DNA of 64,000 bases from Arcuatula senhousia. Its lineage: Eukaryota > Mollusca > Bivalvia > Mytilida > Mytilidae. Location: contig OZ020307.1 of assembly GCA_963971305.1 (NCBI GenBank), forward strand, positions 11,049,501 to 11,113,500, in the 5' to 3' direction. A model generated the notes under the pieces. That model worked only from the letters and a program-made list of their open reading frames with translations. It had not been told where the DNA came from and made no database searches. Positions 6,699 to 64,000 of the stretch are shown piece by piece. Made by a program: the position numbers and the translations under genes. Numbering within the stretch: position 1 is the first letter of the stretch; the number at the start of each line of letters is the position of its first letter.

Positions 6699-6880
6699 TA
6701 TCCAAGATTCTTATGCTAACATACAACCAATAATATGTGACATCACTTGATTAATTTTCTGAAACTACATGTTTCCTTCCACTTGCCACAACAATCAGGT
6801 TCAACATGCATATTTAAAAACCAAAAGTGTACTTTCCTAGAGGCAACAGATGCACATTTGCAGAACAACAATTTACTTTC

Positions 6881-7096
6881 AAGTATGTGACAGATGCACA
6901 TTTATATTTCATTGATGTGACAGATGCACATTTATATTTCAATGATGTGACAACTGCACATTTATATTCCACAAGTATTCTTTCAATGATGTGACAGATG
7001 CACATTTATATTTCATTGATTTGACAAATGCACATTTATATTCCACAAGTATTCTTTCAATGATGTGACAAATGCACATTTGTAGACCAAAAACTA
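6881..7096. repeat. Second copy of the ~30 bp minisatellite
   Basis: Same array as at 5,575-5,790, carried within the duplicated ~780 bp block; the two arrays appear identical by eye. Confidence 0.75.
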
Positions 7097-14827: not shown

Positions 14828-17215
14828 CTAATTAAAACAATTAACTATCATATCTTTTAACTCAATTTTGAACTTTTCTACTAGTGGGTGATAACGAAGA
14901 AAGAATTTTTTAAGTGATCGTATGAGACGTATTTTCTTATAGCCCTGCTTCAAAAGTCGGTCACGAAGAAACCGGTGTCTGATAAAAAAATCTGTAAAAT
15001 GTGTGCAAGCTCTGGCATATCGAATAAGTTGAGAAATATAAACACCGTATGCAGGAGAAGTAGGTATATTGCTCTGTAGATTAGGAAAATTAATAATTTG
15101 AAAATTAAAATCGTCTCGTTTATCGTAAATTTTTGTACTGAGATGACCACCTGGGTCAAATTCGAGGTGCAAATCCAAGAAAGACGTGAAGCAATTGGAT
15201 TCGGTGGTCTCTTTAATCTCCAATTCCGGAGGATATATTGAAGGAATCCAACTACCAAATGAAGTGTTATTGACAGAAAGGACATCATCAATATATCTGA
15301 ATGTAAGATTAAATGACCTTGCCTCTTTCATCTTCTTGTTCTTTACGAGTCCCTGAAGAAATTCAGTCTCGTAAGAGTATAAAAACAAATCGGCGAGGAG
15401 AGGAGCACAGTTTGTGCCCATTGGAATGCCGATTTGTTGTTGAAAAATCTCTCCTCCGAAGGTGACAAATATGTTGTCAATGAGGAAATCAAGCATACTG
15501 CAAACTTGTTCCAGTGTGTAACAAATTTTATCTTTGAAAGATGTTTTGGAAAAGAATGTAGAATTATAACCCAAAACAACAAAATTCCTAGAGTTTGAAA
15601 AGGCTTTTTCGAGAAGTTTTTTCCAGGCGACATTTTAGTTTTTCGTGTGGCAAGGTAGTGTATAAAGTTGAAAAATCGAACGTTTTCAAAGAGTGAACCT
15701 CAGAAAATGATCTAGATTTAAAATTATCTAACAAATCTTTTGAGTTTTTCAAAATCCACATATGGTTAATTCCACTACGATTATAAATAGTGTCGCAGTA
15801 TGCTTGTTGACCTTCTTTGACAGCAGACAAGATTTTAGTTAAATGAACGGACAGCTCTGTAGTTGAACATGATGAAGATCCAGCTATATACCTTTCTTTG
15901 TATGGATTTTTGTGAAGTTTAGGTATCCAGTACAAATATGGTAACTCTTTATGTTCCTCTTTCATTGGAATATTGAAAGAGGACATAAAAGAGCTATGGT
16001 TGGCTATGATTTCATCTTTGTTAAATGTAGTCCGTGTGTATGTAGCACTAGCGGAAGCATTACCATCAATGCCTAGTTCTTTTATTAGACAATTGTAATA
16101 ATGTGCTTTACATACAAAAACTATATTATTGGAAGCCTTGTCTGCTGGCGTGACAACATACCTGTCATGTAAGGAAGAGAGACAATTGAGAGCTTCACGA
16201 TCTCTAAATACAGAAGAAGGCCGGGGGTTCACACATTTGCGAAGTTTGTCTATTCGGCTTCGTACAAGAGATCGGATAGTCCTTACCCAGTCCGACAGTG
16301 ATTCAAGCTCTGGTTCTTGGTCCTTTTCCCTCTTTATCCAGGCTCTAGCATAGTCCTCCACAGCGTCCATGATGATCTTAAAGTTTTGATTCCAATTTAT
16401 ACGTTGTGGTTCCCTGAATTTAGGTCCATGGGAAACCACATTACGTAATAAATCATTTTCAATTATCTTAAGATCACCCGTGATGACATGACCAGATGGA
16501 CCATAGACAAAGGGAGAAGCATAGCAATCACATGTCAGAGGGGACTTTAGATATTCTTCAATGTTTAGGTCCTGCAATGCCTTTTTATGGTTGAAAATTT
16601 TACTACTTATGGTTTTAGTGTAGCGGTAGGAAACAATTGGTGTTGACTGATTTTTGAAATATTGAGGAATTTGAGATGTAACTTCCTTACGATTTAAAAT
16701 ATTGCTAATGTTTATAGCATCTATCCCTTTGTTTTTAAATGGAATATGGAGAAATTTCCTATCCTCAGTAGTAAGAGGCTCACTTCTTACAAGCTTAAAA
16801 AGACGGAAAAGAGCAACGTCGCAAATAATGCTAGTAAGCCTGTAAGAAGGAGTAAATGGATCAGTACCTGCTTTTTCTAACCCAAGATCACGTAGGTCTT
16901 TGAGTTTCGTGACTCGTAGTGAGTAGAGAATGGTACGAACATGATGGACTCCCAATGGTTGTTGTAGACTTGTAACCAGATCATCAAACGTGTCTGAAAG
17001 AGATCTCTTGTCAGTTTGACTGGCACCAGATCTTGGTTTGTATCGTTTGTGACCATGACTACGTTTGTGTCTACCATTAGGGTCAAACAGTTTCATAACA
17101 TTCACCTCACTACATTGAGGGCTAGAAAGATTTCCTACTCCTTTGATGTTATCATTACATCCATAAGGCATTGCAGTACCTAAAGTTTTTATCCAGTGAA
17201 GCCGAGCGCTGTTGA
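14828..17215 (-). pseudogene. Naiad-type Penelope-like reverse transcriptase, frameshifted
   Basis: Two overlapping minus-strand frames (17,171-15,588, 527 codons; 15,574-14,828, 248 codons) form one gene broken by a single-base shift, best placed in the T6 run at 15,617-15,622 (A6 in sense). In order: a linker starting PYGCNDNIKGVGNL, a long N-terminal domain with a CDC motif, a Penelope-like LPYLYWIPKLHK block near residue 410, and motif A aspartate in TFDFSTLYTTLP near residue 500. The second frame carries motif B QQIGIPMGTNCAP, motif C YIDD, and thumb sequence. No GIY-YIG domain follows. The frame stays open upstream of the first ATG as far as ~17,215, so the element is 5'-truncated and has lost its N-terminal nuclease. 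It would copy element RNA into DNA at a nicked target. The homopolymer position means that a sequencing error is possible. Confidence 0.8.
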
Positions 17216-17760
17216 ATTCATTTCCCTCTGATTGTTGACCTGTTAAAAAAGCTAATCTTTGTCCTACATTCTCTTTTTAATAATACCAAGGTAAAAAATG
17301 ACATGTCAATATCTTTTATCAGATTGTGTGTAATTGGTATGTTATCAGCAGTCATTCCGCAATTTGTGAAACCAAAGCAATGCAATACATGCTCTTTTAT
17401 CAAATAGATTTCCTGGAGACATTTTCAAAGGATTCAGATTACTGCTGTAATCATAGCATTAAAATCTGTTGATACCAAGATGTGTCCTGAATTTGTTATT
17501 GTACTTTTAATCTGTTTAGTTGCGGTATTTCCAGGCAGGCAATTATTTGCATTCGAAATTACACGGAAATTTAATAAACCAAGGCAAATTCGGTGTTGTT
17601 TACTTTCATTTTACATAATTTATATCACAATTTATTTTAAAAGTTGCTCTAATAAACTTTTTAATGCCCATAGTTATTACGTAAACATTCCGAATAAAAT
17701 TCTACCTTATTTACTGAAGAGCGCATATTCTTTTGTCTCGTTCTGACCACCTTTCTGACT
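17216..17760 (-). repeat. Copy 2 of the dispersed repeat, right part
   Basis: Homologous to 23,650-24,130 and 29,550-29,890; shared landmarks are gttatcagcagtcatt, gctcttttatcaaat and cctggagacattttcaaa. The 88-codon frame at 17,480-17,746 (+) lacks recognisable domains. Confidence 0.55.
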
Positions 17761-26075: not shown

Positions 26076-27010
26076 CCTAAGTAAAGTGAGACTGATATTG
26101 GATGTTCGATATTCGATATTCAAATTTTTTAAACGTCAAACTGAATATCAAACGGTAAATTTGATATTCATTCGATATTCATTTATCGTTTTTTCTTAGT
26201 ACATTGTATGAACATATAATGAATATCAAACTAAATATCAAGCGGTAATTTTTTAGTTCGATAATTATTGAAATTCGATTCTGGTCTAGTTTTGTTTTGT
26301 GAATATCAAATGAATATCAAACCAAAGTTTCCTTCTTTTTGATATTCATTTGACATTCGTTTCCGGTGTAAATTTGTAATGTGAATATCAAATGATTATC
26401 AAACCAAAGATAAATTCCATTCTATATTCATTTGAGATTCGTTTCAAGTCTAGGTATGTTATGTGAATATGGAATGAATATCGAATGAATATCAAACCAA
26501 AGTTTATTTGTCATTCGATATTCATTTGACGTTCGTTTTAGGTCTAGTTTTGTTTTGTGAATATCAAATTAATATCAAGCCAAAGTTTCTTTCTGTTTGA
26601 TATTCATTTGACATTCGTTTTCGGTGTAAATTTGTAGTATGAATATCAAATGAATATCGAACCAAAGATTAATTCCATTCTATATTTATTTGAGATTCGT
26701 TTCGGGTCTACGTATGTTATGTTAATTTGAAATGAATATCGAATGATTATCAAACCAAAGTTTATTTGTCATTCGATATTCATTTGACGTTCGTTTTAGG
26801 TTTAGTTTTGTTTTGTGAATATTAAATGAATATCGAGCCAAAGTTTCCTTCTGTTTGATATTCATTACATGTTTATACCAAGAAAAAAACGATAAATGAA
26901 TAGCGAATGAATATCAAACGGTAAAATTAACCGTTTGATATTCAGTTTGATATTAAAAAAAAATGATTATCGAATATCGAACACCGAATATTAGTCTCAC
27001 TTTACTTAGG
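26076..27010. mobile_element. MITE with ~45 bp TIRs and an internal repeat array
   Basis: The left end CCTAAGTAAAGTGAGACT is inverted at the right end (27,010 backwards), and the match continues into a TTCGATATTCGAT core. Imperfect direct repeats TGGATATGGA / TGGATATGA flank it. The interior is a tandem array of GAATATCAAATGAATATC and its complement, so the whole 935 bp element can fold on itself in many registers. It is non-coding. Confidence 0.8.
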
Positions 27011-29884: not shown

Positions 29885-30480
29885 TCGATTATGATAACAG
29901 CAATTATACTTATTTTGCCATCCAAGAGTCTAGCAAGAAAAACAAATTTACAGAAGATCAAATAAAAGAAATGCTCAACTTTCTAAACGACAACATACTT
30001 GTACTGTTTGGTGGACGTGTTTTTCAACAGACAATAGGTATCCCAATGGGCACAAATTGTTTCTTCATTCATATGAAGCGGACTTCTTACAACCACTTCT
30101 AGACAAAAAGGACCGCAAACTTGCTATATCCTTCAATCTCACATTTTGCTATATTGATGATGTTCTTTCACTAAACAATCCTCGATTTGGTGACTATTTA
30201 CATCTCATATATCCGAAGGAACTTGAGATAAAGGCCACTGCAGATGACTTCAACTTTCCAATAGTTAACTTTCCCTTTCTGTGTAGCAACATTCCGTCCA
30301 CTCCAGCATATGGAGTTTACGTATCTCAATTGATTCGTTATTCCAGAGCATGCGGGGAGTACAACGACTTGCTTGATAGAGCTACACGGCTGACAAGCCA
30401 ATTTTAAACACAGGGTTGTCATTTCTCAAGAAATTTTACGGAAGATATCATGTGCTTGTATACAAATACGGGATTTCTAT
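29885..30480 (+). pseudogene. Penelope-like reverse transcriptase fragment
   Basis: Plus strand, opposite to the other copies. It reads a motif B region (GGRVFQQTIGIPMGTNC), then loses about eight codons and shifts frame. It then continues from 30,057 as FLHSYEADFL, a YIDDVLS motif C, and a region in which ~27 codons are deleted in frame between KELEIKAT and FNFPIVNF. The thumb part follows and stops at 30,407. The gene is clearly dead: 5'-truncated, with one frame-shifting and one in-frame deletion. Confidence 0.8.
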
Positions 30481-37406: not shown

Positions 37407-37854
37407 GGTACCTAGCCATGTAGGGGTAAGTGGTAATGAGAAAGCGGACAAAGCTGCAAAATCGGCTCTGTCTCTCGCTACTACTACACAAGTTCCCATT
37501 TATAAAAACGACATCAAGACGTTTTCTAAACAAATTATTTTAAATGCATGGCAAAAACAGTGGAACGGTAATGATAGCAAAGACTTATATTCTTTAAAAC
37601 CAAAAGTAGACTTTAAAATGCCTATACATAATCTGAAAAGAAAACAGGAAAATGTGCTATATATGCTACGTAATGGCTATATAGGCCTTAATAAACATCT
37701 TATTAAAATTAACGTAGTAAGAAACCCATTGTGTATTTATTGCAAACAGTCAGAAACAGTATATCATTTTCTTTTCGAATGTAAACAGTTCACTGATGTC
37801 AGAAAATCCATGATCACAGAAATGAAAGAGAGAAACGTAGAATTTTCTCTGTAA
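37407..37854 (+). pseudogene. I-type LINE ORF2, end of RNase H and C-terminal zinc knuckle
   Basis: Continues the LINE frame broken at 33,082. G at 37,407 completes the TGG codon, then VPSHVGVSGNEKADKAAK supplies the RNase H histidine and last aspartate. The C-terminal region has a C-x2-C...H-x4-C motif (CIYCKQSETVYHFLFEC) as in many I-clade LINEs. The stop codon is at 37,852-37,854. Confidence 0.8.
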
Positions 37855-50754: not shown

Positions 50755-51405
50755 ATGCCGAGAAACAGAATATTTAGTGATGGAGTTGAGGAAAAAGAGG
50801 TCAGCTACAGAATAGCAGTATTAGGTGCCCCAGGGGTGGGCAAATCGTCCATCATATCACAATTTCTGTATGAACAGTTTAACAGTGAATATAAAGAAAC
50901 AATCGAGGAACTACACCGAGGAGAATATGACATAGAGGGGAGACAATTAACATTAGATATATTGGACACCGCTGGTCATAACGAATTTACAGGAATGAGA
51001 AAGTTGGCTTTAAGCTCAAGTGATGCCTTTATATTAGTTTATTCTATGACAGACACTAGCTCATTTGAGGAGGTTAAAAAGCTCCGAGAAGATATTGTGA
51101 CCGAACGAGGTCAAAAAGTGCCTATTGTGATAGTTGGTAACAAATCAGACATCAGTTCAAACTTATCACCAGTTGACAAAGAGACGGCGGCTTCTATAGC
51201 TTGCTGTGACTGGGAAACAGGGTTTGTTCAAGCCTCTGCCAAGGAGAATATTAATATAGTTGGAATATTCAAAGAACTTTTAAGACTTTCACACTTTCCA
51301 CAGCCTCTTAGTCCTGCAGTCAGAAAGAGGCGCATGTCAATACCTAATACAACGACATCTAAATCTGTCCATAGACATTCAAGGCAGAGTTGTGTAATAA
51401 GTTGA
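50755..51405 (+). CDS. Ras-family small GTPase, Ras-dva/RASD-like
   Basis: A 216-residue protein starting at ATG 50,755, two bases after a splice acceptor (tcttttcag). All five G motifs are present: G1 GAPGVGKSS (24-32), switch I with EELHRGEY (51-58), G3 DTAGHNEF (71-78), G4 NKSD (129-132) and G5 ASAK (160-163). The C-terminus is basic and ends CVIS, a CaaX box for prenylation, so the protein should sit on membranes and act as a GTP-controlled signalling switch. The EELHR block and a C-terminal extension of ~35 residues resemble Ras-dva and RASD proteins rather than classical Ras. Two switch positions are unusual: proline at the Ras Gly12 site (P26) and histidine at the Gln61 site (H75). The coding sequence is a single exon. 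An ATTAAA lies about 60 bases after the stop. The exact subfamily is uncertain. Confidence 0.9.
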   Translation: MPRNRIFSDGVEEKEVSYRIAVLGAPGVGKSSIISQFLYEQFNSEYKETIEELHRGEYDIEGRQLTLDILDTAGHNEFTGMRKLALSSSDAFILVYSMTDTSSFEEVKKLREDIVTERGQKVPIVIVGNKSDISSNLSPVDKETAASIACCDWETGFVQASAKENINIVGIFKELLRLSHFPQPLSPAVRKRRMSIPNTTTSKSVHRHSRQSCVIS

Positions 51406-52890
51406 CGAAGATATATAAAATATCTTTTTTATATGTTTGTTTATTTTTGTAAAATGTTTGTATTAAAAGTTGTATAAACTGGATATTTATTTGCCTAGAT
51501 GAATTAACTCTGATAAAAAATGACATTTTAGACTAACCCAGAGTGTCCCGTTGCTTTTATCTTAAGAAATATAATATCGGACATTGATAAAAAAAAATCA
51601 CAATAAGAACAGATTTAAGTTCTTATATAATTCGCAGTATTCAAAATATTTTATTGTTCTTTATTGTCTTGACTAAACGAGTTGAATGGAATCAGTCCTA
51701 GTTTTGAATTGAAAAGACCAATTTTCAAAATATTTCAAACAAACTCTCTAGGAATACTAAATAGTAGTCCTGTATTTGTTGTATATTCTCGTTTTGAATT
51801 GCCCTTTCCGGCCTATAAAGTATTGCAACATTTGGTTCCACTGAAGATGGTCATTATTTTAATCACAATTACACAAAAATTTGTCTGAAAGGTGTCATAT
51901 TTTATATAATAGAAAAGTCCAAGATTCAATTGTGATTGTTATGATGCTTTATATGGTTTAAACTATTGGAGGCTTCAATTATCTTATTATGAACTATATG
52001 ACATCTCAAATACAATTAGTTGTACAAAAAGGTCAATACATTGAGATAATGCTATAAAAGCAGAAATCAGTTGGCTTAAAATTACTCAATTAAGACTAGA
52101 AGACTTTCAAAATATTACTGATACTTTGAATCGTGAAGGATGACCATTATATTGAACAAAATGTACGTAGAAAAGCAAAGAGGCACCACTGGGGCATCCG
52201 AGTGTTAAGAAATCTGAAACGGCAAAACAAGATTTAGGTTATTCTGTTTCGTCTTTCAATATCCAAACAAATAAACAATCGATTGTCAAAATCCAAAAGC
52301 TTGTTCCTGTCCCAGACATAGGTTGATCTTAGTCATAATTTGGTTTCCAGTTCGGCATTTTTGGTTAATTGTTCTATACTCTTCTTTTTTTTAATTTCCA
52401 TGTTGCCTATGATTAGTTTAATAGACGAAACGTGCGTCAGGCGTAGCTAAGATTAATGTCTGTAACTGTGTTGTAACTTTATTTGTACGTTAAATGAAAA
52501 ATATACAAACACTGTAAGTATATAAGTTGGCTTAAGAAACTATGAAACTCTTTGCAATTATTAGAGCTCTATTCATTGTCATTATCTAGCATACTCTTTT
52601 CTAACAAGCTAATTAATTTCTTAACAAAAAGCTATCTCAAGGATATAAATACGAAGGGTACTTTTCCATTAGGATTATTTTTACAGCAAACAAAAGTCAG
52701 AACAAAATGAATTGTAATATATTAGAAAGCCTTCCGCATGGCAGAACAAAACGTCTGACATTATCACGCTGTCATTACCATATAGTAATTTCTCCAGAAT
52801 GTTGAAAGATCTACAGAATCTTTCTTCGTGTTCTTTCATGGACATATTTTTAAGCCGATTTTACAGAAACTTTGTACTATAAGGAAAAGC
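51406..52890. other. Ras gene 3' region and AT-rich intergenic sequence
   Basis: The 3' untranslated region probably ends within ~100 bp of the stop codon. A repeat-like tail (cgaaacgtgcgtcaggcgta) at 52,426-52,445 resembles one at about 48,496 and is likely dispersed. A second TATAAATAC motif occurs at about 52,642, with no coding exon recognised behind it. Confidence 0.4.
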
Positions 52891-52895
52891 GTAAG

Positions 52896-53125
52896 TAGTA
52901 GTATACTGGGTCACTCTAGACCACTTTGACCCCGATGACCCCGAGTTCATTCCCATAGGCTCCATGTTAAATCGTTGCTATTTTTGGTACTGAAATACCC
53001 ACCCAAGATCTCTAGCAGTAAAGTCGTGTGCAGTCATGCGGAACGGCGACTCGCCCCTTTCTTTCGCCCCATTTTAGTTCGTCACCAATTTCTATTATGT
53101 ATTATTATCTCTTATCTTTAACGTA
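52896..53125. other. Possible outer end of the polymerase element
   Basis: TAGTAGTATAC at 52,896-52,906 is followed by gggtcact and tgaccccgatgacccc (to 52,943). Both echo the sequence at the inner end of the palindrome arm (tagtagtata at 59,283-59,292; gggtcacttt at 59,012). This may be the outer terminus of the element. The right-hand partner lies beyond the window, so it cannot be confirmed. Confidence 0.3.
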
Positions 53126-53199
53126 CCCTAGCCCTAACCCTAATCCTAATCCTAACCCTAGCCCTAACCCTAATCCTAATCCTAACCCTAATCCTAACC
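53126..53199 (-). repeat. Telomere-like (TTAGGG)n variant array, outer end
   Basis: Twelve hexamers of CCCTAA, CCCTAG and TCCTAA on the plus strand, arranged as a ~30 bp higher-order unit of five hexamers repeated twice plus a remainder. In the sense of the adjacent polymerase gene it reads TTAGGG, TTAGGA and CTAGGG. The variants and short length argue against a live telomere. A (cct)n run follows at about 53,263-53,281. Confidence 0.9.
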
Positions 53200-53564
53200 A
53201 TTTGTTTTGTTAGTGTCGTTCTGTCATTTCTATGTGTTATATAGTTTTACTGCCCCTCCCCCTCCTCCTCCTCCTCCTCCTCTTTCCCTCATTTCCCCTC
53301 ATTCTCATCCTCATTGTCCCTAATTTTCCTCATTTCCCTCCTCATTTTCTCTTGTATTTTTCGTCTTTTGATCTTGTTTTGTTCATGTATGGCTCAACTC
53401 TAATTGGTTCTTTTCGTTTATTGTTTGGTTCGCCCTTTATGGGCTCTTTGTTTGTCTTTGTTATTGTATTGATAGCTGTTTCCTTTAAGTTTTCAATAAA
53501 AACTCAAAATCAGGTACAACTTTTATTAACATTCTACGTTTTATTTACATTCTATTTTACAAAT

Positions 53565-56500
53565 TTAATATCCATAAGGTCTGGTGGTTAAATCGTTCAT
53601 GATCACTCTTTTGTCAAATACAATTCTATAATCTTTCTTTTGTGAAACGGTTAACAGTTTTTGATTGCTTCTTTGGATCTTGTAATCGTCTCTCACTGTC
53701 CTGATATCGTTTCTGTTAACGGTTACCATCTCCTTGATGGTGTCGTAGTTGATGTCTAAAGCGTTCTTGAAGTTGAGTGTTATTCCACGAACTTTGCACA
53801 TAGTTCTGTTTCCTCCTTTCTCGGGAATGGCTAGTTTGTATGCATAGTTCTTTGGTCCTCCCGTAACAAACTCTGTAATAGTATTTCCTGGTACTTCATC
53901 TGTTAAATCCCCTAAGTAGTCTCCCAGTTTAGGACTCCATTCTCCTGGTTTCGATGTAAATACGATGGAGTCCGTGTCGCAGTACAGTGTTCTTGGTCCC
54001 AAATTCTCCAGATAAGAATACAGTTTGAGTCTGGCCTGGGCGGTAGTATAGGCTGCTATGACGACATTCGTTTTCTTTGAGGTTTCGATGAACTCTTCTT
54101 TATATTTCCATCGTAATTCCACCATTTCATCGTTAACAAACTGGATCCCGGTGACTTCAATTTTATCGCTGGTTAATATGTCGAAGTATTTCTTTTGTTC
54201 TGTAATGTAGGTGGTCTGTTGCATGTTGTTTCTTTGTCCAAACTTGCCCCAAAAGCTGTTCAACATCAGTTTGGCTAAAGACCTGATGCCGGGGTTCTTT
54301 TCTATTTTGTTATAGTCTAACTGTATCCCTTCCCTAAAGTTTTCCGTAATGATGATGGGATGTCCTTTGGGTACTTTTCCGGTCTTGTTTACAAATGGAT
54401 AGAGTGATGTCACGTCATAGTAGTTGATACTGTTTTCTTCCGCCTCTTTGTATAGAGTGAGGGCCTCTGTTCGTCCACCATAAAAGGCTTCTCGTGGTTC
54501 CAAAGCAGGAATCATCTCTAAGGAGTTGACAAAGTCGCAAAATGTCGTATCATTTTTCAGCTCTCTCTCAAAGTCGCATTCCCATTTCTCTATATAGTCA
54601 TATCCCTCTTGCTGCAGATAAGTCTTCTTCTCTAAGGTCCGTTGATGTAGTTAGTACATGGACATGTTATTGACGGTATTGGTGGTCTCTCTTGGGTAAC
54701 ATCTGGGACACCCGTGCCAGTAACAGCCGTGAAATTCATACACGGTTCCATCATGATATCCATCTACCCTATAGGGACCAATCTGTTTCTCTCCTTCGTT
54801 CTTGGCGTGTTGGATCTGTATGTCTTTTATTGCGGATACGTATTTTAACCATTTCATGGCTTTAATAGAGTGCTTGTGTTCTGGTCGATAGCCTTGCGCC
54901 GGGATGAGGCCAATAGTATTCAACCGTAGAAACTTGGATCGAAAGACCAGGTTGCAGGCAGAGGCAATGGTGATACTGTTTTGGAAGGGGTCGATTGGAG
55001 TACCCTCTAAAGTGTCCATGAACAGTTGTCTAAAGGTTAAACAGGCTTTTCTCAGTATGTCTACGTCAGTGATGCAGTACTTCAAGAGTTCCTTTTGGAC
55101 GTCAAAAGGCTCGTTTCTGTGGTCTTCGTACCATTTCATGAATGTTATTCGGTCTTCCGTCTTCATTCCATCGGGGTTGTAGTAACGAATCTCTGGAAGA
55201 GTTTCTAATCTAACGTTCTGGTTTTCCTTTGTATTAAAAAGGTGTGGGAAGTATCCTTTGTGGAGTTCGTCGAATCCAAACATTTTTGGGAGTTTGGCTA
55301 TCTATTGAGAATCTATCATCCGTATGCTGCAGCTTGGAATCGTTACAGACATGTTCTTGGCGCCGTTGGGGATTATCTTGGGTTGAATTCCATGATGAAA
55401 CAGGTATTGTAGAACGGGGATAGAGTCGTATCCTTTAAAGTTGTGGCAAATAACGGTGGAGTTGTTGTTGTTTCCGGAAAATAACCAGTTGCAAAAGTCG
55501 TTGTTGGCGTTGTGTCCCCTAAAAATGAGTTGATTCTGTCCACAGATCTTGCAGGTACTCTCTTCAGTTACTTCCTCCTCCAGGCATACGGTGCACACCT
55601 TATGGACCACGCATAAGTTAGGTCGGTGTTCCATGGCTCCGCAGGTACTGGCTTTGCAATGTAAACAAGTTCCATTAGAATCCGGTTGGTATCCCGTATC
55701 GCACTCTACGAGGTCGTCTTGTGTGCATTCAAAATCAAAGAAGATGTAAGTTTGCTCTTCGGGAGGTTTTTTTATTACTATAGGCATCATGTAACACTGG
55801 TGGCTTGGATCGCAGTACTGTTTACAGGATGGACAATACATCTCGCCACACTCATGGTCTGTTTCCCTTTTCTCCATGTTGACGGCGTGGCCACAGTCTT
55901 TACACTTGTAGTACCATTTACATGTTGAGTTGCCCTTTTTTGTTTGCTCCAAATGAAGTTGGAAGCACTCTTTTCCCTTAAAGTTTCTATCACATAGGCT
56001 ACAGTTGATCCAATTGTCTTCACAGGGTTCGTGTATCTTTTTACAAAGGATGCATGGGTTGTTGCATGCATGTGTTTCCTTTGTATTATATCCCTTTTTA
56101 CACTTGTTGCAGTAATAGACCCTGGTCAAGAATCCTGTTATAGTGGTGATGACATCGTAATGGTCTTCGTGGTGGTAAAGGTAAATTTTCTTATCAGTTT
56201 CCGGACCTTCGTAGATGATTCCTTTGAAAAAGTCTTTGGAGAAAACGGTGATTTGGTATTCCGGCAGTACAGCTTGGAATTGTTTCAGTTCCTCGATGCC
56301 GCAGGGTCCATTTGGTACATTGGCTTTCTCGTGGAGTTGAAGGGCCAAGTATTCCTGTATGCGTCTTCCTTGACGAATGGACTTCCATTGAGGATGGTTA
56401 TCTATCCTTGCTTTCGCAGTAACAATGGCTCTAGCGCAGCATAATTCGTCTCGGTTTCGGATCCTGACGAAACTTTGTTTGTCTTTAAGCATTCTGTCGA

Positions 56501-57188
56501 GATCAACGAAGTTGCATCTCTTGCGCCCTGATCCTTCGGGAATAGATACGTGAAGGATATCTAATTCCAGGCTTCCGTCCAATACAAACTCTTCATGAGA
56601 TTGTAAAACTCTTTCTATTTCCTTTAATAGTAGTTCCGTAGTCAAGTCCTTGAGTTGTAATACCGGAAGGGCAATCGGGAAGTCAAGGGAGTTGGTTTCA
56701 ATTGTTAGTTTAACAAGGTCGTGTTCTTTCATCTCTTTTCCAATGGTTTGCAGGATGGAGTCGAATAACCGATGTAGTGTTCTTGTGATGGAAGGCAGGT
56801 CCGTGACTTCAAATTCCTTAAAGGTGACTGTATAATGATTTCTTGAAGTTCCAAACTTGAGTATTCTTTTCTTCTCCTGCCGTTTGATGGTGTAATAGGA
56901 TTTCGGATCATCCATGTGGAACGGCTGCCCTGCTCCTCTTTGTCCATGTCTTTGCTGATGTAACTCTAAATGGCGTTGGGTGGCAAAGGCCTGGTTGCAT
57001 TGGGTACATTCGTAGCCCATTTGGTAGCGGGTCATGTGAGCTTGTAGATTCTCCCGTCTCGTAAAGGTCTTAGTGCATCTCGTACACGAGTAAGTCTCTC
57101 TGTGATTGGTCAATCGTCTATGACGATAGAGTTGACTCATCCTCTCAAAACTCGCTTCACATTGGTTGCAGGTAAATTGCTTAGGCAT
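53565..57188 (-). pseudogene. Polinton-type protein-primed DNA polymerase B, left arm, broken
   Basis: About 1,207 codons from ATG 57,188. Three N-terminal C2H2 fingers (residues 5-29, 33-55, 59-81) and a Cys/His-rich central region precede an exonuclease domain with DFE (485-487), HNFKGYD (582-588) and YCITD (~704-708). Then come a VDGYHDGTVYEFHGCYWHGC block characteristic of Maverick/Polinton polymerases and the polymerase motifs DVTSLYP (~925), KLMLNSFWG (~973), YCDTDS (~1071) and KNYAYK (~1113). Breaks: an in-frame TAG at 55,302-55,304 inside a small deletion/replacement, an in-frame TAA at 54,651-54,653, and a His-to-Tyr change at finger 2 (residue 55). Reading frame is otherwise kept, so decay is recent. 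AATAAA in sense at 53,540-53,545 may end the transcript. The family replicates linear DNA from a protein primer. Confidence 0.9.
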
Positions 57189-57269
57189 CTGAAACAAAAG
57201 AACACAGGTAAGTATTCATGTATGACTCATAGGTTTGCTTAAATATGTATTGCTCTTACTTGTGACCTT

Positions 57270-57450
57270 TAATAACCTAATGTTACTGTTTAATATTATA
57301 ACGCTTAGCTTCTCTCTTAGTCTGATCTCTTTGGCATCTAATCGTTAAATGGTTTTTTAAATAACCTTATGTTTAATATTATACCGCTTACCTTCTCTCT
57401 TTGTTAAAACACGTCTGATCTCTTTGGCGTCTAATCGTTAAATGATCTGA
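57270..57450 (-). repeat. Direct repeat in the polymerase leader, left arm
   Basis: Two ~85 bp imperfect copies containing (in sense) atttaacgattaga, gccaaagagatcaga and a taagcg..tataatattaaa block. They lie upstream of the polymerase start, mirrored at 61,346-61,525. Confidence 0.75.
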
Positions 57451-58115
57451 TTTCAAATAGTTTACCTGTATATTGTATTGTATCACGTGATCATGTCACG
57501 TGACTTTCTGGATCGAACCGGTTAGAACCGGTTTTTGAAACGCTTCAATAAAATTTTCCATTAGATGTTTTTCTTCAGTATGGTTTTGTGGAAAAGTTTT
57601 CAAAGTTTCATAATTTTATTAAAAAGTTTTTAATTTTGTTTGGATTTTATAAAAAGGTTTTAAGATTTTATTAAAAAGATTTTGATTTTGTTTAGATTTT
57701 GTGAAAAAGTTTTAAAATTTTTATATTTTTATTAAAAAGATTTTGATTTTGTTCGGATTTTGTGAAAATGTTTTCAAAGTTTTAGGATTTTCATCGAAAT
57801 ATTTTGATTTTGTTTAGATTTTATGTACATGTTTTCATATTAAAGTTTAGTTTCATCAAAACAGCTTAAGTATACATTTTAATTGGAGGAATTGTGGTGG
57901 AAAATGTGGAATTGTGGTGGAAAATGTGGAAATGTGGAGGAATTGTGGGGGGAAATGTGGAAATGTGGGGGGAAATGGGGTGAAACCCCCCCCAAAATTC
58001 GGGGGGGTGAAATGGGTAATATTGGGGTGAAATGGGGGTTTTTATGGTAAAATGGGGGGGGGGGAAATCCCCCCCAATTTCGGGGGGGAATGTGGAAATG
58101 GGGGGGGGGGGGGGG
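57451..58115 (-). repeat. AT-rich tandem repeat and G-tract region, left arm
   Basis: 57,560-57,850 holds about five ~55 bp units (on the plus strand ttttgtttagattttgtgaa and relatives). 57,890-58,115 is G-rich on the plus strand, with runs of 7 to 17 G separated by short spacers, capable of quadruplex formation. A pair of ccggtt motifs (gaaccggttagaaccggttt) lies at 57,515-57,534. The mirror is at 60,670-61,290. Confidence 0.8.
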
Positions 58116-58251
58116 GTAATTGGGGTTGTTTCCAGCTAAATCAGCTGTTGTTGCTGCGTAAAAGGCTCACTCTATGGAGTAATCAAACAAAACGCGTGTA
58201 CAAGTTCGAATACTTTATTGAGTAAATACAGTCTTCTTTATAGTTCCATCA

Positions 58252-58719
58252 TTATTTGGTCTTTTCTAGGTTTGACTTGGGCTTTCTTCCTCTTGGACTC
58301 TTTACTTCCTTGGACTTTACAATTCGTTCGTTAAGGCTCTTTACTTCCTTGGACTTTGCAATTCGTTCCTTAAGGTTCTTTACTTCCTTGGACTTTTCAC
58401 CTCTGGACTTCTTCGATTTTATGGACGTCTTTGCATTCTTGATTGGTTGTCTCTTCATGACATCTTTAGAGGTTTCCTTTGTCTTTAACTTTGACTCTTG
58501 TAGCTTCGCCAAGTGTCTTATCTCCTTGTATATGGCCTTTCCTAAACTTTCAAGTCTCTGTTGCACAGCCTTCGGGCGTCTTGTCAGTTTTTCTGGTGGT
58601 CCGGCTTTAATCTTGGGTACTCTTTTCTCTTTGGAGTCTACATGTTTCACTTTCTTATGGCGTGTAACATCACTTGGCCATGCAAACCGTCTCTTGCATA
58701 CGGAGCACTGATAAACCAT
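58252..58719 (-). CDS. C2H2 zinc-finger, lysine-rich small protein, left arm
   Basis: A 155-residue protein read from ATG 58,719, which has a favourable context (AACATGG). One C2H2 finger (C5, C8, H21, H26) is followed by a very basic tail with a 13-residue repeat built on KSKEVK-x-L-x-ERI, three times (about 109-140). The tail ends with PRGRKPKS, which resembles an AT-hook. No catalytic domain. Likely a nuclear DNA-binding or DNA-packaging protein; a terminal-protein or accessory replication role is possible but unsupported. It lies between the palindrome centre and the polymerase, pointing the same way as the polymerase. AATAAA in sense 30-40 bases after the stop fits a compact, separately polyadenylated gene. 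The protein is identical to the right-arm copy. Confidence 0.7.
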   Translation of the reverse strand: MVYQCSVCKRRFAWPSDVTRHKKVKHVDSKEKRVPKIKAGPPEKLTRRPKAVQQRLESLGKAIYKEIRHLAKLQESKLKTKETSKDVMKRQPIKNAKTSIKSKKSRGEKSKEVKNLKERIAKSKEVKSLNERIVKSKEVKSPRGRKPKSNLEKTK

Positions 58720-58784
58720 GTTTCCTCTTCGGTGTCTAACGTAAGACTGACTCAAACTCTACCTGTCATTTCCTATATCTTTCT

Positions 58785-58917
58785 GTAACCCTAACTCTCT
58801 TCTGTTCTATTTTTAACCCTAACCCTAACTTTCCTTTGTTCTATTTTTAACCCTGGCCTCATTCTAACCCTAACTCTCTTCTGTCTTTAACCCTAACCCC
58901 TAACCCTTTAGTATGTT
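58785..58917 (-). repeat. Telomere-like repeats interspersed with AG-rich units, left arm
   Basis: Single or double CCCTAA hexamers alternate with ~25 bp spacers (ctctcttctgttctattttt). In the sense of the neighbouring gene they read TTAGGG. They lie directly upstream of the zinc-finger gene; mirrored at 59,874-60,006. Confidence 0.85.
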
Positions 58918-59010
58918 TCTTTATGGGCTCTTTATGGTGTCTCGTACTTAGTTCTTCTTATATTCCTTATGTATTGGTCCTTGGCTCTTTAACACCCTTA
59001 GTTTTTGGAA

Positions 59011-59180
59011 TGGGTCACTTTGGGGTCAAGTCCTGACTGACCACTGACCATAACCACCCTTAAACCCCCAGAATCAACCTCTAGACCTTAAAAGCTGTCT
59101 AATGATATACAACAACCCTATATTGGACCTAATTTAGGTATTGGTCATTTTGTGGTCAAGCCCCTAATGACCACTGACCA
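59011..59180. repeat. Paired GGTCA/TGACC modules, left arm
   Basis: Two modules 130 bp apart (59,011-59,050 and 59,141-59,180) each carry GGTCAYTTTGKGGTCAAG followed by TGACCACTGACC. Repeated half-sites in both orientations look like iterons or nuclear-receptor half-sites. Mirrored at 59,611-59,780. Confidence 0.6.
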
Positions 59181-59293
59181 ACACAACGGACATCATCGGA
59201 AAGACATTGTCTTACCCAAGACAATGCAACAAACCGGAAGGAAATCGGACAAGGAATAACAAAGTTATGACTTATTAAAAAATAGTAGTATAT

Positions 59294-59497
59294 GATTGGT
59301 GAACAGCTCGAATTTCTCGGATATCTCGAATTTTCGCGCGAAAATGAGTTTCCAAAACTGGAAACTGCGTCATGGGGCGGAACCGGAAGTCACGTGATCC
59401 AAGATGGCCGACCAGAACCGGATGTGACGTCATACGCCTGCACAAAAGGCCGCTCCACCTCTGCTCCACCTGAGAAATGCGACTCGTGAACAACATG
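59294..59497. promoter_or_regulatory. Central spacer: dense host-type transcription motif cluster
   Basis: The only unpaired part of the palindrome. In order: inverted CCAAT (tgattggt, 59,293-59,300), a palindromic E2F-like TTTTCGCGCGAAAA (59,331-59,344), a TTTCCAAAACTGGAAA palindrome (59,350-59,365), ETS-like ACCGGAAGT (59,382-59,390), E-box TCACGTGA (59,390-59,397), YY1-like AAGATGGCC (59,401-59,409), ETS-like ACCGGATGT (59,418-59,426) and CRE TGACGTCA (59,425-59,432). AACCGGAWGTSACGTSA occurs twice as a direct repeat 36 bp apart. Divergent genes leave on both sides, so a shared bidirectional promoter/enhancer is the natural reading. Its ends are weakly inverted too. Confidence 0.6.
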
Positions 59498-59610
59498 ATA
59501 CACTACTATTTTTTAATAAGTCATAACTTTGTTATTCCTTGTCCGATTTCCTTCCGGTTTGTTGCATTGTCTTGGGTAAGACAATGTCTTTCCGATGATG
59601 TCCGTTGTGT

Positions 59611-59780
59611 TGGTCAGTGGTCATTAGGGGCTTGACCACAAAATGACCAATACCTAAATTAGGTCCAATATAGGGTTGTTGTATATCATTAGACAGCTTT
59701 TAAGGTCTAGAGGTTGATTCTGGGGGTTTAAGGGTGGTTATGGTCAGTGGTCAGTCAGGACTTGACCCCAAAGTGACCCA
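59611..59780. repeat. Paired GGTCA/TGACC modules, right arm
   Basis: Mirror of the modules at 59,011-59,180, with the same 130 bp spacing. No coding region lies between the spacer and the telomere-like repeats. Confidence 0.6.
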
Positions 59781-59873
59781 TTCCAAAAACTAAGGGTGTT
59801 AAAGAGCCAAGGACCAATACATAAGGAATATAAGAAGAACTAAGTACGAGACACCATAAAGAGCCCATAAAGA

Positions 59874-60006
59874 AACATACTAAAGGGTTAGGGGTTAGGG
59901 TTAAAGACAGAAGAGAGTTAGGGTTAGAATGAGGCCAGGGTTAAAAATAGAACAAAGGAAAGTTAGGGTTAGGGTTAAAAATAGAACAGAAGAGAGTTAG
60001 GGTTAC
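59874..60006 (+). repeat. Telomere-like repeats, right arm
   Basis: GGGTTAGGGGTTAGGGTTAA and further TTAGGG hexamers alternate with AG-rich spacers immediately upstream of the zinc-finger gene. Mirror of 58,785-58,917. Confidence 0.85.
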
Positions 60007-60071
60007 AGAAAGATATAGGAAATGACAGGTAGAGTTTGAGTCAGTCTTACGTTAGACACCGAAGAGGAAAC

Positions 60072-60539
60072 ATGGTTTATCAGTGCTCCGTATGCAAGAG
60101 ACGGTTTGCATGGCCAAGTGATGTTACACGCCATAAGAAAGTGAAACATGTAGACTCCAAAGAGAAAAGAGTACCCAAGATTAAAGCCGGACCACCAGAA
60201 AAACTGACAAGACGCCCGAAGGCTGTGCAACAGAGACTTGAAAGTTTAGGAAAGGCCATATACAAGGAGATAAGACACTTGGCGAAGCTACAAGAGTCAA
60301 AGTTAAAGACAAAGGAAACCTCTAAAGATGTCATGAAGAGACAACCAATCAAGAATGCAAAGACGTCCATAAAATCGAAGAAGTCCAGAGGTGAAAAGTC
60401 CAAGGAAGTAAAGAACCTTAAGGAACGAATTGCAAAGTCCAAGGAAGTAAAGAGCCTTAACGAACGAATTGTAAAGTCCAAGGAAGTAAAGAGTCCAAGA
60501 GGAAGAAAGCCCAAGTCAAACCTAGAAAAGACCAAATAA
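60072..60539 (+). CDS. C2H2 zinc-finger, lysine-rich small protein, right arm
   Basis: Identical to the left-arm protein (155 residues, ATG at 60,072, stop at 60,537-60,539). AATAAA at 60,572-60,577 gives a 3' end about 50-60 bases past the stop. The absence of any amino-acid difference between arms, while the polymerases differ, suggests either recent duplication or selection/gene conversion near the centre. The frame can be read upstream to a TTG at 60,036, but the ATG in good context is preferred. See the left copy for domains. Function unknown; DNA binding is inferred. Confidence 0.7.
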   Translation: MVYQCSVCKRRFAWPSDVTRHKKVKHVDSKEKRVPKIKAGPPEKLTRRPKAVQQRLESLGKAIYKEIRHLAKLQESKLKTKETSKDVMKRQPIKNAKTSIKSKKSRGEKSKEVKNLKERIAKSKEVKSLNERIVKSKEVKSPRGRKPKSNLEKTK

Positions 60540-60669
60540 TGATGGAACTATAAAGAAGACTGTATTTACTCAATAAAGTATTCGAACTTGTACACGCGTT
60601 TTGTTTGATTACTCCATAGAGTGAGCCTTTTACGCAGCAACAACAGCTGATTTAGCTGGAAACAACCCC

Positions 60670-61290
60670 AATTACCCCCCCCCCCCATTTCCACATTCCC
60701 CCCCGAAATTGGGGGGGATTTCCCCCCCCCCCATTTTACCATAAAAACCCCCATTTCACCCCAATATTACCCATTTCACCCACCCCCCCCCCCGAATTTG
60801 GGGGGGGGGGTTTCACCCCATTTCCCCCCACATTTCCACATTTCCCCCCACAATTCCTCCACATTTCCACATTTTCCACCACAATTCCACATTTTCCACC
60901 ACAATTCCTCCAATTAAAATGTATACTTAAGCTGTTTTGATGAAACTAAACTTTAATATGAAAACATGTACATAAAATCTAAACAAAATCAAAATATTTC
61001 GATGAAAATCCTAAAACTTTGAAAACATTTTCACAAAATCCGAACAAAATCAAAATCTTTTTAATAAAAATATAAAAATTTTAAAACTTTTTCACAAAAT
61101 CTAAACAAAATCAAAATCTTTTTGATAAAATCTTAAAACTTTTTTATAAAATCCAAACAAAATTAAAAACTTTTTAATAAAATTATGAAACTTTGAAAAC
61201 TTTTCCACAAAACCATACTGAAGAAAAACATCTAATGGAAAATTTTATTGAAGCGTTTCAAAAACCGGTTCTAACCGGTTCGATCCAGAA
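60670..61290 (+). repeat. C-tract and AT-rich tandem repeat region, right arm
   Basis: Mirror of 57,500-58,115: C-rich runs with short spacers (60,670-60,910), then ~55 bp AT-rich units (aaaatctaaacaaaatcaaa type) to about 61,210. It separates the zinc-finger gene from the polymerase leader. Homopolymer lengths differ from the left arm (for example 12 versus 17). Confidence 0.8.
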
Positions 61291-61345
61291 AGTCACGTGA
61301 CATGATCACGTGATACAATACAATATACAGGTAAACTATTTGAAA

Positions 61346-61525
61346 TCAGATCATTTAACGATTAGACGCCAAAGAGATCAGACGTGTTTTAACAAAGAGA
61401 GAAGGTAAGCGGTATAATATTAAACATAAGGTTATTTAAAAAACCATTTAACGATTAGATGCCAAAGAGATCAGACTAAGAGAGAAGCTAAGCGTTATAA
61501 TATTAAACAGTAACATTAGGTTATT
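61346..61525 (+). repeat. Direct repeat in the polymerase leader, right arm
   Basis: Two ~85 bp imperfect copies: catttaacgattaga, gccaaagagatcaga and agagagaaggtaagcggtat in the first, with agagagaagctaagcgttat in the second. The first copy holds the GTAAGC donor-like sequence used in the proposed leader intron. Confidence 0.75.
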
Positions 61526-61607
61526 AAAGGTCACAAGTAAGAGCAATACATATTAAAGCAAACCTATGAGTCATACATGAATACTTACCTGTGTTCTTTT
61601 GTTTCAG
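61405..61607 (+). other. Possible leader intron of the polymerase gene
   Basis: AAG then GTAAGC (GT at 61,405-61,406) and a strong polypyrimidine acceptor, tgttcttttgtttcag, end immediately before the ATG at 61,608. This gives a 203 bp intron with a typical animal layout. Inference from splice motifs only; the same motifs are mirrored in the left arm. Confidence 0.45.
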
Positions 61608-64000
61608 ATGCCTAAGCAATTTACCTGCAACCAATGTGAAGCGAGTTTTGAGAGGATGAGTCAACTCTATCGTCATAGACGATTGACCAATCACAGAGAG
61701 ACTTACTCGTGTACGAGATGCACTAAGACCTTTACGAGACGGGAGAATCTACAAGCTCACATGACCCGCCACCAAATGGGCTACGAATGTACCCAATGCA
61801 ACCAGGCCTTTGCCACCCAACGCCATTTAGAGTTACATCAGCAAAGACATGGACAAAGAGGAGCAGGGCAGCCGTTCCACATGGATGATCCGAAATCCTA
61901 TTACACCATCAAACGGCAGGAGAAGAAAAGAATACTCAAGTTTGGAACTTCAAGAAATCATTATACAGTCACCTTTAAGGAATTTGAAGTCACGGACCTG
62001 CCTTCCATCACAAGAACACTACATCGGTTATTCGACTCCATCCTGCAAACCATTGGAAAAGAGATGAAAGAACACGACCTTGTTAAACTAACAATTGAAA
62101 CCAACTCCCTTGACTTCCCGATTGCCCTTCCGGTACTACAACTCAAGGACTTGACTACGGAACTACTATTAAAGGAAATAGAAAGAGTTTTACAATCTCA
62201 TGAAGAGTTTGTATTGGACGGAAGCCTGGAATTAGATATCCTTCACGTATCTATTCCCGAAGGATCAGGGCGCAAGAGATGCAACTTCGTTGATCTCGAC
62301 AGAATGCTTAAAGACAAACAAAGTTTCGTCAGGATCCGAAACCGAGACGAATTATGCTGCGCTAGAGCCATTGTTACTGCGAAAGCAAGGATAGATAACC
62401 ATCCTCAATGGAATTCCATTCGTCAAGGAAGACGCATACAGGAATACTTGGCCCTTCAACTCCACGAGAAAGCCAATGTACCAAATGGACCCTGCGGCAT
62501 CGAGGAACTGAAACAATTCCAAGCTGTACTGCCGGAATACCAAATCACCGTTTTCTCCAAAGACTTTTTCAAAGGAATCATCTACGAAGGTCCGGAAACT
62601 GATAAGAAAATTTACCTTTACCACCACGAAGACCATTACGATGTCATCACCACTATAACAGGATTCTTGACCAGGGTATATTACTGCAACAAGTGTAAAA
62701 AGGGATATAATACAAAGGAAACACATGCATGCAACAACCCATGCATCCTTTGTAAAAAGATACACGAACCCTGTGAAGACAATTGGATCAACTGTAGCCT
62801 ATGTGATAGAAACTTTAAGGGAAAAGAGTGCTTCCAACTTCATTTGGAGCAAACAAAAAAGGGCAACTCAACATGTAAATGGTACTACAAGTGTAAAGAC
62901 TGTGGCCACGCCGTCAACATGGAGAAAAGGGAAACAGACCATGAGTGTGGCGAGATGTATTGTCCATCCTGTAAACAGTACTGCGATCCAAGCCACCAGT
63001 GTTACATGATGCCTATAGTAATAAAAAAACCTCCCGAAGAGCAAACTTACATCTTCTTTGATTTTGAATGCACACAAGACGACCTCGTAGAGTGCGATAC
63101 GGGATACCAACCGGATTCTAATGGAACTTGTTTACATTGCAAAGCCAGTACCTGCGGAGCCATGGAACACCGACCTAACTTATGCGTGGTCCATAAGGTG
63201 TGCACCGTATGCCTGGAGGAGGAAGTAACTGAAGAGAGTACCTGCAAGATCTGTGGACAGAATCAACTCATTTTTAGGGGACACAACGCCAACAACGACT
63301 TTTGCAACTGGTTATTTTCCGGAAACAACAACAACTCCACCGTTATTTGCCACAACTTTAAAGGATACGACTCTATCCCCGTTCTACAATACCTGTTTCA
63401 TCATGGAATTCAACCCAAGATAATCCCCAACGGCGCCAAGAACATGTCTGTAACGATTCCAAGCTGCAGCATACGGATGATAGATTCTCTCAACTTCCTT
63501 CCAACGGCCTTAGCCAAACTCCCGAAAATGTTTGGATTCGACGAACTCCACAAAGGATACTTCCCAAACCTTTTTAATACAAAGGAAAACCAGAACGTTA
63601 GATTAGAAACTCTTCCAGAGATTCGTTACTACAACCCCGATGGAATGAAGACGGAAGACCGAATAACATTCATGAAATGGTACGAAGACCACAGAAACGA
63701 GCCTTTTGACGTCCAAAAGGAACTCTTGAAGTACTGCATCACTGACGTAGACATACTGAGAAAAGCCTGTTTAACCTTTAGACAACTGTTCATGGACACT
63801 TTAGAGGGTACTCCAATCGACCCCTTCCAAAACAGTATCACCATTGCCTCTGTCTGCAACCTGGTCTTTAGATCCAAGTTTCTACGGTTGAATACTATTG
63901 GCCTCATCCCGGCGCAAGGCTATCGACCAGAACACAAGCACTCTATTAAAGCCATGAAATGGTTAAAATACGTATCCGCAATAAAAGACATACAGATCCA
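61608..64000 (+). CDS. Polinton-type protein-primed DNA polymerase B, right arm, partial
   Basis: Open from ATG 61,608 to the window edge: 797 codons and 2 bases with no stop. Three intact C2H2 fingers are present at the N-terminus; His55 of finger 2 is kept here, unlike the left copy. The Cys/His-rich middle region and all three exonuclease motifs are present: DFE, HNFKGYD and YCITD. The region corresponding to the left-arm TAG and microdeletion is intact here. The polymerase motifs lie beyond 64,000. Such enzymes copy linear DNA from a terminal protein and are found in Polintons/Mavericks, adintoviruses and related elements; the added zinc fingers may tether the enzyme to element DNA. Whether the full gene is intact cannot be seen. 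Confidence 0.9.
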   Translation, partial: MPKQFTCNQCEASFERMSQLYRHRRLTNHRETYSCTRCTKTFTRRENLQAHMTRHQMGYECTQCNQAFATQRHLELHQQRHGQRGAGQPFHMDDPKSYYTIKRQEKKRILKFGTSRNHYTVTFKEFEVTDLPSITRTLHRLFDSILQTIGKEMKEHDLVKLTIETNSLDFPIALPVLQLKDLTTELLLKEIERVLQSHEEFVLDGSLELDILHVSIPEGSGRKRCNFVDLDRMLKDKQSFVRIRNRDELCCARAIVTAKARIDNHPQWNSIRQGRRIQEYLALQLHEKANVPNGPCGIEELKQFQAVLPEYQITVFSKDFFKGIIYEGPETDKKIYLYHHEDHYDVITTITGFLTRVYYCNKCKKGYNTKETHACNNPCILCKKIHEPCEDNWINCSLCDRNFKGKECFQLHLEQTKKGNSTCKWYYKCKDCGHAVNMEKRETDHECGEMYCPSCKQYCDPSHQCYMMPIVIKKPPEEQTYIFFDFECTQDDLVECDTGYQPDSNGTCLHCKASTCGAMEHRPNLCVVHKVCTVCLEEEVTEESTCKICGQNQLIFRGHNANNDFCNWLFSGNNNNSTVICHNFKGYDSIPVLQYLFHHGIQPKIIPNGAKNMSVTIPSCSIRMIDSLNFLPTALAKLPKMFGFDELHKGYFPNLFNTKENQNVRLETLPEIRYYNPDGMKTEDRITFMKWYEDHRNEPFDVQKELLKYCITDVDILRKACLTFRQLFMDTLEGTPIDPFQNSITIASVCNLVFRSKFLRLNTIGLIPAQGYRPEHKHSIKAMKWLKYVSAIKDIQI

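What the first reader, a model, noticed from the sequence alone, without database searches (positions are those of the whole stretch)
52896..64000. A palindromic element carrying two divergent protein-primed DNA polymerases
Two nearly identical arms (at least 4.5 kb) point outward from a ~204 bp unique spacer, each with a zinc-finger gene and a Polinton-type polymerase B. Known Polintons are single linear units with short TIRs, integrase, ATPase and capsid genes; none of those is visible here. Possible explanations are a stable head-to-head dimer, an inverted replication intermediate trapped in the genome, or a minimal self-replicating palindromic element.
Basis: partly seen in the sequence, partly recalled or inferred. 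Interest (0 to 1): 0.92.

Follow-up and report, generated by a model that had tools for sequence, protein, structure and literature searches.

The report
Mirror-image Polinton-like mobile element
An animal genome, probably that of a mussel relative, carries many copies of a virus-like mobile element built as a mirror image, with its own DNA-polymerase gene on each side of a short cap, and the element is likely made by folding back and copying itself.

Summary
The palindrome is real and not a one-off. It belongs to a multi-copy family of Polinton-type elements in a 1.04-Gb genome, probably of a mussel relative. The window copy runs from 52894 to 66199 (13.3 kb): two arms of 6.4 and 6.7 kb, each with a C2H2/PolB gene and a small zinc-finger gene, around a 224-bp cap. 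Its complete centre matches at 22 loci. Both outer ends begin AGTAGT; 10 of 12 palindromes tested have perfect 6-bp target duplications (window: 5 of 6 bases). Arms of one copy differ by 0.0-0.5%, copies by 1.6-19.8%, so each palindrome is born with near-identical arms. PolB is under strong purifying selection (dN/dS about 0.1). Monomers (one arm plus cap) also exist, 5 of 5 testable ones with perfect duplications, and the palindrome junction lies exactly at the monomer's terminus. Likely mechanism: the cap's 3' end folds back on an internal copy of the terminus and primes synthesis of the second arm. No integrase, ATPase or capsid gene was found in the element, so integration probably comes from another element; capsid genes of separate elements are abundant in the genome. 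One palindrome has arms of two lineages, so joining between molecules also happens.

The parts
52888..52893 (.). left copy of the 6-bp target-site duplication, AGCGTA (right copy AGCATA lies at 66200-66205, outside the window)
   Evidence: 5 of 6 bases match
52894..53124 (+). outer left end, (AGT)3 then ATACTGGGTCACTCTAGACC; the end type shared by the family
   Evidence: census
52894..59283 (-). left arm (6.4 kb)
   Evidence: inverted copy of the right arm
53565..57188 (-). left C2H2/PolB gene, broken: two stops and about 139 codons missing
   Evidence: frames, PF03175, stops and gap
58252..58719 (-). left small zinc-finger gene (155 aa)
   Evidence: (the identical right copy)
59284..59507 (.). 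cap: X end (59284-59292, AGTAGTATA), core with TTTTCGCGCGAAAA (59331-59344), tandem repeat (59448-59471), Y end (59499-59507)
   Evidence: the Y end is the terminus of monomers
59508..64000 (+). right arm, continuing to 66199 (L009)
60072..60539 (+). right small zinc-finger gene (155 aa)
61608..64000 (+). right C2H2/PolB gene, open to the window end, disrupted beyond it

Best explanation
This is one insertion of a multi-copy Polinton-type mobile element that sits in the genome as a head-to-head palindromic dimer, likely made when the end of a one-armed monomer folds back onto an internal copy of that end and primes synthesis of the second arm. Shown: monomers (arm + cap) and dimers (arm + cap + arm) are both found as insertions with 6-bp duplications; the dimer junction coincides with the monomer's terminus; arms are near-identical within a copy and diverged between copies; PolB is conserved. 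Inferred: a displaced strand ending ...ATACTACT-3' pairs with the internal AGTAGTAT about 200 nt upstream, is extended back through the arm to the outer end, and the hairpin becomes a linear duplex by predicted protein-primed initiation at the outer AGTAGT end. The product would then be integrated by an rve-type integrase supplied by another element.
For: Ends (AGT)n/(ACT)n, as reported for Mavericks (PMC8097293 passages). Perfect 6-bp duplications at 10 of 12 palindromes and 5 of 5 testable monomers. Arms differ 0.0-0.5% within and 1.6-19.8% between copies; arms of 7 of 7 copies are sisters; one copy has 0 differences in 6,888 aligned bases. PolB damage mostly private to one arm. In 10 of 10 palindromes besides the window the arms stop at AGTAGTAT on both sides. 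11 of 17 partial matches read end cleanly at the Y end, all with the arm on the X side. Monomer L052 and dimer L026/L027 have almost the same PolB, dN 0.001 and dS 0.002. dN/dS 0.08-0.12 in 14 of 15 pairs of six open PolB frames. Palindromic derivative L059 lacks the same PolB stretch in both arms.
Against: No integrase was found in the element and no helper was identified. Protein priming was not tested. One of 19 PolB pairs (C14:15.67-15.68 Mb) has arms of two lineages but a perfect duplication, so a strictly intramolecular rule fails there. L016/L017 share a stop in both arms, which could mean gene conversion in place or a defective parent. The partial matches were found with a query holding both arms, and only 40 of 855 candidates were scored, so the X-side rule rests on a part. 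One 1.6-kb remnant has no duplication. L052 and L026/L027 carry different caps, which simple fold-back does not explain.
Confidence: 0.7

Rival explanations
1. The dimer is itself the self-propagating form. Its displaced single strand snaps back along ~7 kb, mismatch repair evens out the arms in the hairpin, and the dimer is copied as a dimer; monomers are by-products that start at the cap's Y end.
For: Palindromes are at least as common as monomers (22 complete-centre and 18 partial matches among 40 scored); 11 of 19 PolB pairs have both frames open for at least 1349 codons; within-copy arms are near-identical.
Against: Clean monomers always have the arm on the X side (11 of 11), so by-products would have to start at Y only; the junction is exactly the monomer terminus.
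Confidence: 0.2
2. Ordinary arm-to-arm gene conversion in the chromosome keeps the arms alike, as in other large palindromes; the dimer arose once and its age is hidden.
For: Arms are alike within copies; one stop is shared by both arms of L016/L017.
Against: Damage is mostly private to one arm, including large gaps; one palindrome keeps arms of two lineages.
Confidence: 0.06
3. Assembly or library fold-back artefact, or a chromosomal inverted duplication of a normal element.
For: Perfect-looking palindromes are a known artefact of fold-back reads; no reads could be examined.
Against: Flanks on the two sides differ apart from the 6-bp duplication; arms carry private mutations; the centre recurs at 22 loci.
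Confidence: 0.02
4. A pair or remnant of ordinary Polintons whose integrase and capsid genes were lost or lie nearby.
For: Maverick-type ends and a DNA_pol_B_2 polymerase; capsid genes are abundant in the genome.
Against: The monomer is complete at 7.5 kb with its own duplication and only PolB and the zinc-finger gene recognisable; 0 of 98 capsid matches lie within 25 kb of the 57 scored PolB matches; the duplication surrounds the whole palindrome, not each arm.
Confidence: 0.02

Closest known systems
Polinton/Maverick self-synthesizing transposons (PMC8097293 and PMC4028283, passages read)
   Same: (AGT)2//(ACT)2 end motif, 6-bp target duplications, type-B DNA polymerase of the DNA_pol_B_2 family
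   Different: Here no integrase, ATPase or capsid gene was found; monomer 7.5 kb; palindromic dimers with arms of about 7 kb where intact vertebrate Mavericks have terminal repeats of 46-1447 bp
Parvovirus-type rolling-hairpin replicons such as AAV (PMC11575299, passages read)
   Same: Monomer and dimer forms and a terminus whose 3' end would prime by folding back (inferred here)
   Different: No Rep/NS1-like gene recognised; the outer end is Polinton-type; insertions carry 6-bp duplications
Bidnaviruses (PMC4061559, passages read)
   Same: Small genome with a Polinton-derived polymerase
   Different: They have capsid and helicase genes and repeats that are said not to form hairpins; no palindromic integrated form
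Symmetric left-end recombinants of adenoviruses (recalled, not read; search found no paper on them)
   Same: Palindromes of a protein-primed linear DNA with one genome end at both ends
   Different: Recalled as sporadic defective genomes, not a conserved integrated multi-lineage family

Membership tests
Polinton/Maverick | end motif (AGT)2//(ACT)2 | tested here: met
   motif from PMC8097293
Polinton/Maverick | 6-bp target-site duplication | tested here: met
   10 of 12 palindromes perfect, window 5 of 6 bases, one remnant none; 5 of 5 testable monomers
Polinton/Maverick | type-B polymerase of the protein-primed kind | tested here: met
   PF03175 by sequence; priming itself not tested
Polinton/Maverick | RVE integrase | tested here: not met
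   no such frame among the frames of at least 100 aa in the 7.5-kb monomer L052 or in the window element
Polinton/Maverick | FtsK-like ATPase, protease and capsid genes | tested here: not met
Polinton/Maverick | single unit with terminal repeats of 46-1447 bp (intact vertebrate Mavericks) | tested here: not met
   dimers: arms of about 6.4-7.6 kb; monomers: ends share about 9 bases, AGTAGTATA; range from PMC8097293
Rolling-hairpin replicon (parvovirus type) | fold-back 3' terminus giving monomer and palindromic dimer | tested here: inconclusive
   anatomy fits; replication not observed
Rolling-hairpin replicon (parvovirus type) | Rep/NS1 nickase-helicase | tested here: not met
   only PolB and zinc-finger matches among monomer frames

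The most novel reading that the evidence does not exclude
A new kind of animal mobile element that joins Polinton-type ends and polymerase to a parvovirus-like fold-back cycle: it alternates between a capped monomer and a palindromic dimer, carries a swappable cap with its own repeat signature, and parasitises the integrase (and perhaps the capsids) of co-resident Polintons.
Probability: 0.45. Interest if true: 0.93.

Novelty: new variant of a known kind. Interest (0 to 1): 0.88.

Why it matters
Palindromes of linear DNA replicons are usually seen as defective by-products. Here the palindrome is a recurrent, integrated form whose polymerase is under selection, with its monomer partner in the same genome. 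The replication cycle of Polinton-type elements, proposed but to my knowledge not observed, could then be read from genome sequence. Arm divergence gives each insertion its own clock, as LTRs do. It would also be a polymerase-carrying satellite that depends on others for integration, in a genome with about a hundred capsid genes of separate elements.

Tried and rejected
Rejected: assembly fold-back, chromosomal inverted duplication and a pair of ordinary Polintons (see rivals). My first idea, a single accidental symmetric recombinant, was dropped. Led nowhere: viral-contig scans with PolB, P0001, the zinc-finger protein and the PolB alignment confirmed no relative; phage records gave no match; the solved-structure searches showed zinc-finger chains in the 60 rows listed (of 80 and 189); the rve search scored 150 of 1963 candidates, many in long retroelement-like frames, and named no helper; PHROGs gave polymerase families and a weak zinc-finger match; the bacterial promoter scan and the single-strand fold of the centre (its palindromic edges pair by construction) decide nothing. 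Ten paper searches listed no palindromic Polinton in the rows shown; the library is open-access only and I read passages of five papers.

Full report
What is there. The window is G000:C5:11049501-11113500 of a 1.04-Gb genome in 1803 contigs. A Ras-like gene beside the element (50755-51405) has its best named match in Mytilus coruscus at 76% identity, and the best-scoring polymerase relative is a Mytilus galloprovincialis protein at 55%. The host is therefore probably a mussel relative; the species is not known. The element runs from 52894 to 66199, the last part in locus L009. Two arms point outward from a 224-bp cap. Each has a C2H2/PolB gene (PF03175 and C2H2 fingers) and a 155-aa protein with one weak C2H2 match; a search with the latter found 3 relatives, 85-93% identical, none named. 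At this locus the left PolB has two stops and lacks about 139 codons and the right one is disrupted beyond the window. Copies with open frames exist elsewhere.

It is a family. The palindrome centre (801 bp) was searched in the genome: 40 of 855 candidates were scored, 22 of them matching the complete centre (window included) and 18 only a part (counted and by eye). A 24-base outer-end pattern occurs 66 times forward and 77 times reverse, the reversed control 0 times. Of the first 100 listed ends, 60 form 30 inward-facing pairs: 19 are 13.1-16.2 kb apart, 10 are 1.6-11.0 kb, one is 29.8 kb; 40 ends are unpaired. A PolB search scored 57 of 1626 candidates; they hold 19 close pairs, 19 of 19 divergent, and 19 singles. 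Full-size end pairs and PolB pairs together mark 30 distinct loci, and 41 with the complete-centre matches added. Seven full-size palindromes were read (window, L010/11, L012/13, L016/17, L018/19, L024/25, L026/27); the others are inferred from these paired signals. In 11 of the 19 PolB pairs both frames are open for at least 1349 codons (my count).

It inserts as a unit. Twelve palindromes were examined at both outer ends. Ten have perfect 6-bp duplications: ACGTGT, ACTATT, ATTATT, CTCGTG, ATTGAC, TACAAC and AATTGG, AAAATG, ACTGCA and GTCATG; a chance match is about 0.0004 each. The window has AGCGTA against AGCATA and an extra AGT on the left. One 1.6-kb remnant (L060) has none. L014/L015 and L022/L023 lack an end and were not testable. 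Beyond the duplication the flanks differ. PMC8097293 (passages) gives 5'-(AGT)2//(ACT)2-3' ends and 6-bp duplications for vertebrate Mavericks.

The arms of a copy are born alike. Over a 2.4-2.9-kb PolB stretch arms of one copy differ by 0.0-0.5% and different copies by 1.6-19.8%; in 7 of 7 copies the two arms are sisters. Long arm alignments of these copies are 97.5-99.9% identical with gaps counted. L018/L019 shows no difference in 6,888 aligned bases in one alignment; a slightly longer one has 3 mismatches and 3 gaps. Damage to PolB is mostly private to one arm; the exception is a stop at residue 205 in both arms of L016/L017. dN/dS among six open PolB frames is 0.08-0.12 in 14 of 15 pairs, with dS up to 1.18; the fifteenth pair, monomer L052 and dimer copy L026, has almost no changes. 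The lineages have diverged under selection while their arms stayed matched.

A result against strict fold-back. One of the 19 PolB pairs (C14:15.67-15.68 Mb) has unlike arms: 92% and 99% identical to the window protein, 16 differences in 457 bases, and outer ends of different types, yet a perfect duplication GTCATG. It was most likely joined from two parent molecules before insertion. End-to-internal-end priming between two molecules would do that; so would recombination.

Monomers. Of the 18 partial matches, 17 were read on the far side of the cap. Eleven end at the Y end of the cap ((ACT)2, one of them GCTACT) and go on into unrelated DNA; six are truncated, altered or part of palindromic derivatives. 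Six outer ends were fetched: 5 of 5 testable have perfect duplications, AACATC, CATATC, GCGGTC, CCCACC and TATAAA; the sixth has no Y end. L052 is a 7.5-kb monomer with an open 1351-codon PolB and a 157-aa zinc-finger protein; its other frames of at least 100 aa gave no Pfam match above a curated cut-off. In 11 of 11 clean monomers the arm is on the X side of the cap, and no row shows a Y-side-only copy; the query held both arms, but only part of the candidates was scored. In 10 of 10 palindromes besides the window the arms stop at AGTAGTAT on both sides. A monomer thus carries its own terminus, AGTAGTATA, a second time about 200 nt inside, and the palindrome is what results if the 3' end folds onto that inner copy and is extended. 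In the window the one arm difference in the innermost 1.2 kb falls inside this motif, where a primer would keep its own base; most other copies lack it, so it may be a later mutation.

Derivatives are palindromic too. L020/L021 (5.25 kb, another zinc-finger gene, no PolB) and L059 (5.4 kb, both arms lacking the same PolB stretch) have perfect duplications. A deletion found in both arms again says that one arm is copied from the other or both from one template.

The cap. It is asymmetric: X end, CpG-containing core with TTTTCGCGCGAAAA, a tandem repeat of 6-10 bases, Y end. I count at least seven tandem types and five Y types in many combinations. Monomer L052 and dimer L026/L027, alike in PolB, have different caps. 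I read this as swapping of caps during replication; a role in origin specificity, perhaps through the zinc-finger protein, is a guess.

Integration. No rve integrase, ATPase or capsid gene was recognised in the element. The genome has 126 matches to the double-jelly-roll capsid family, 98 of them near full length, mostly in open 451- or 472-codon frames. None of the 98 lies within 25 kb of the 57 scored PolB matches, so they appear to belong to other elements, possibly the helper.

Filing. It works like a Polinton at its ends and polymerase and, by anatomy, like a rolling-hairpin replicon at its cap. It fails tested features of Polintons (integrase, ATPase, capsid, short terminal repeats), so I call it a new variant related to Polintons, not a Polinton. 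Ten paper searches listed nothing on palindromic Polintons in the rows shown; passages were read in PMC8097293, PMC10294476, PMC4028283, PMC4061559 and PMC11575299.

Noticed in passing
own genome G000, e.g. L061-L066: 126 double-jelly-roll capsid matches, 98 near full length and mostly in open 451/472-codon frames: an abundant, probably recently active capsid-encoding Polinton-like population in the same genome.
   Followed up: partly
window 59448-59471 and caps of other copies: The cap holds a tandem repeat that differs between copies and is combined freely with several Y-end types, like exchangeable origin signatures. Unexplained.
   Followed up: partly
G000:C14:15674816-15686171 (L069-L072): A palindrome with arms and outer ends of two lineages but a perfect target duplication GTCATG.
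   Followed up: yes
L020/L021, L059, C9:19009244-19013702: Small palindromic derivatives without intact PolB, also with perfect 6-bp duplications; L020/L021 carries a different 164-aa zinc-finger gene.
   Followed up: partly
window 53125-53199 and 58786-58904 (and the mirror copy): Telomere-like ACCCTA repeats near both the outer and inner ends of the arm, with TGACC/GGTCA motifs nearby.
   Followed up: no
window 61588-61608: The PolB ATG directly follows a polypyrimidine-CAG stretch that looks like a splice acceptor, suggesting an upstream non-coding exon (sequence; not tested).
   Followed up: no
window 14828-17276, 29934-30407, 37408-37854: Frames that look like retroelement remnants; only 37408-37854 has a (sub-threshold) Pfam match, zf-RVT.
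   Followed up: partly
window 26257-26866 and 5571-7081: A complex 82/258-bp tandem array, and a 30/74-bp array present twice about 1.3 kb apart.
   Followed up: no
G000:C11:50281216-50292128: Three outer ends in the same orientation spaced 5456 bp apart, a possible tandem array of the element.
   Followed up: no
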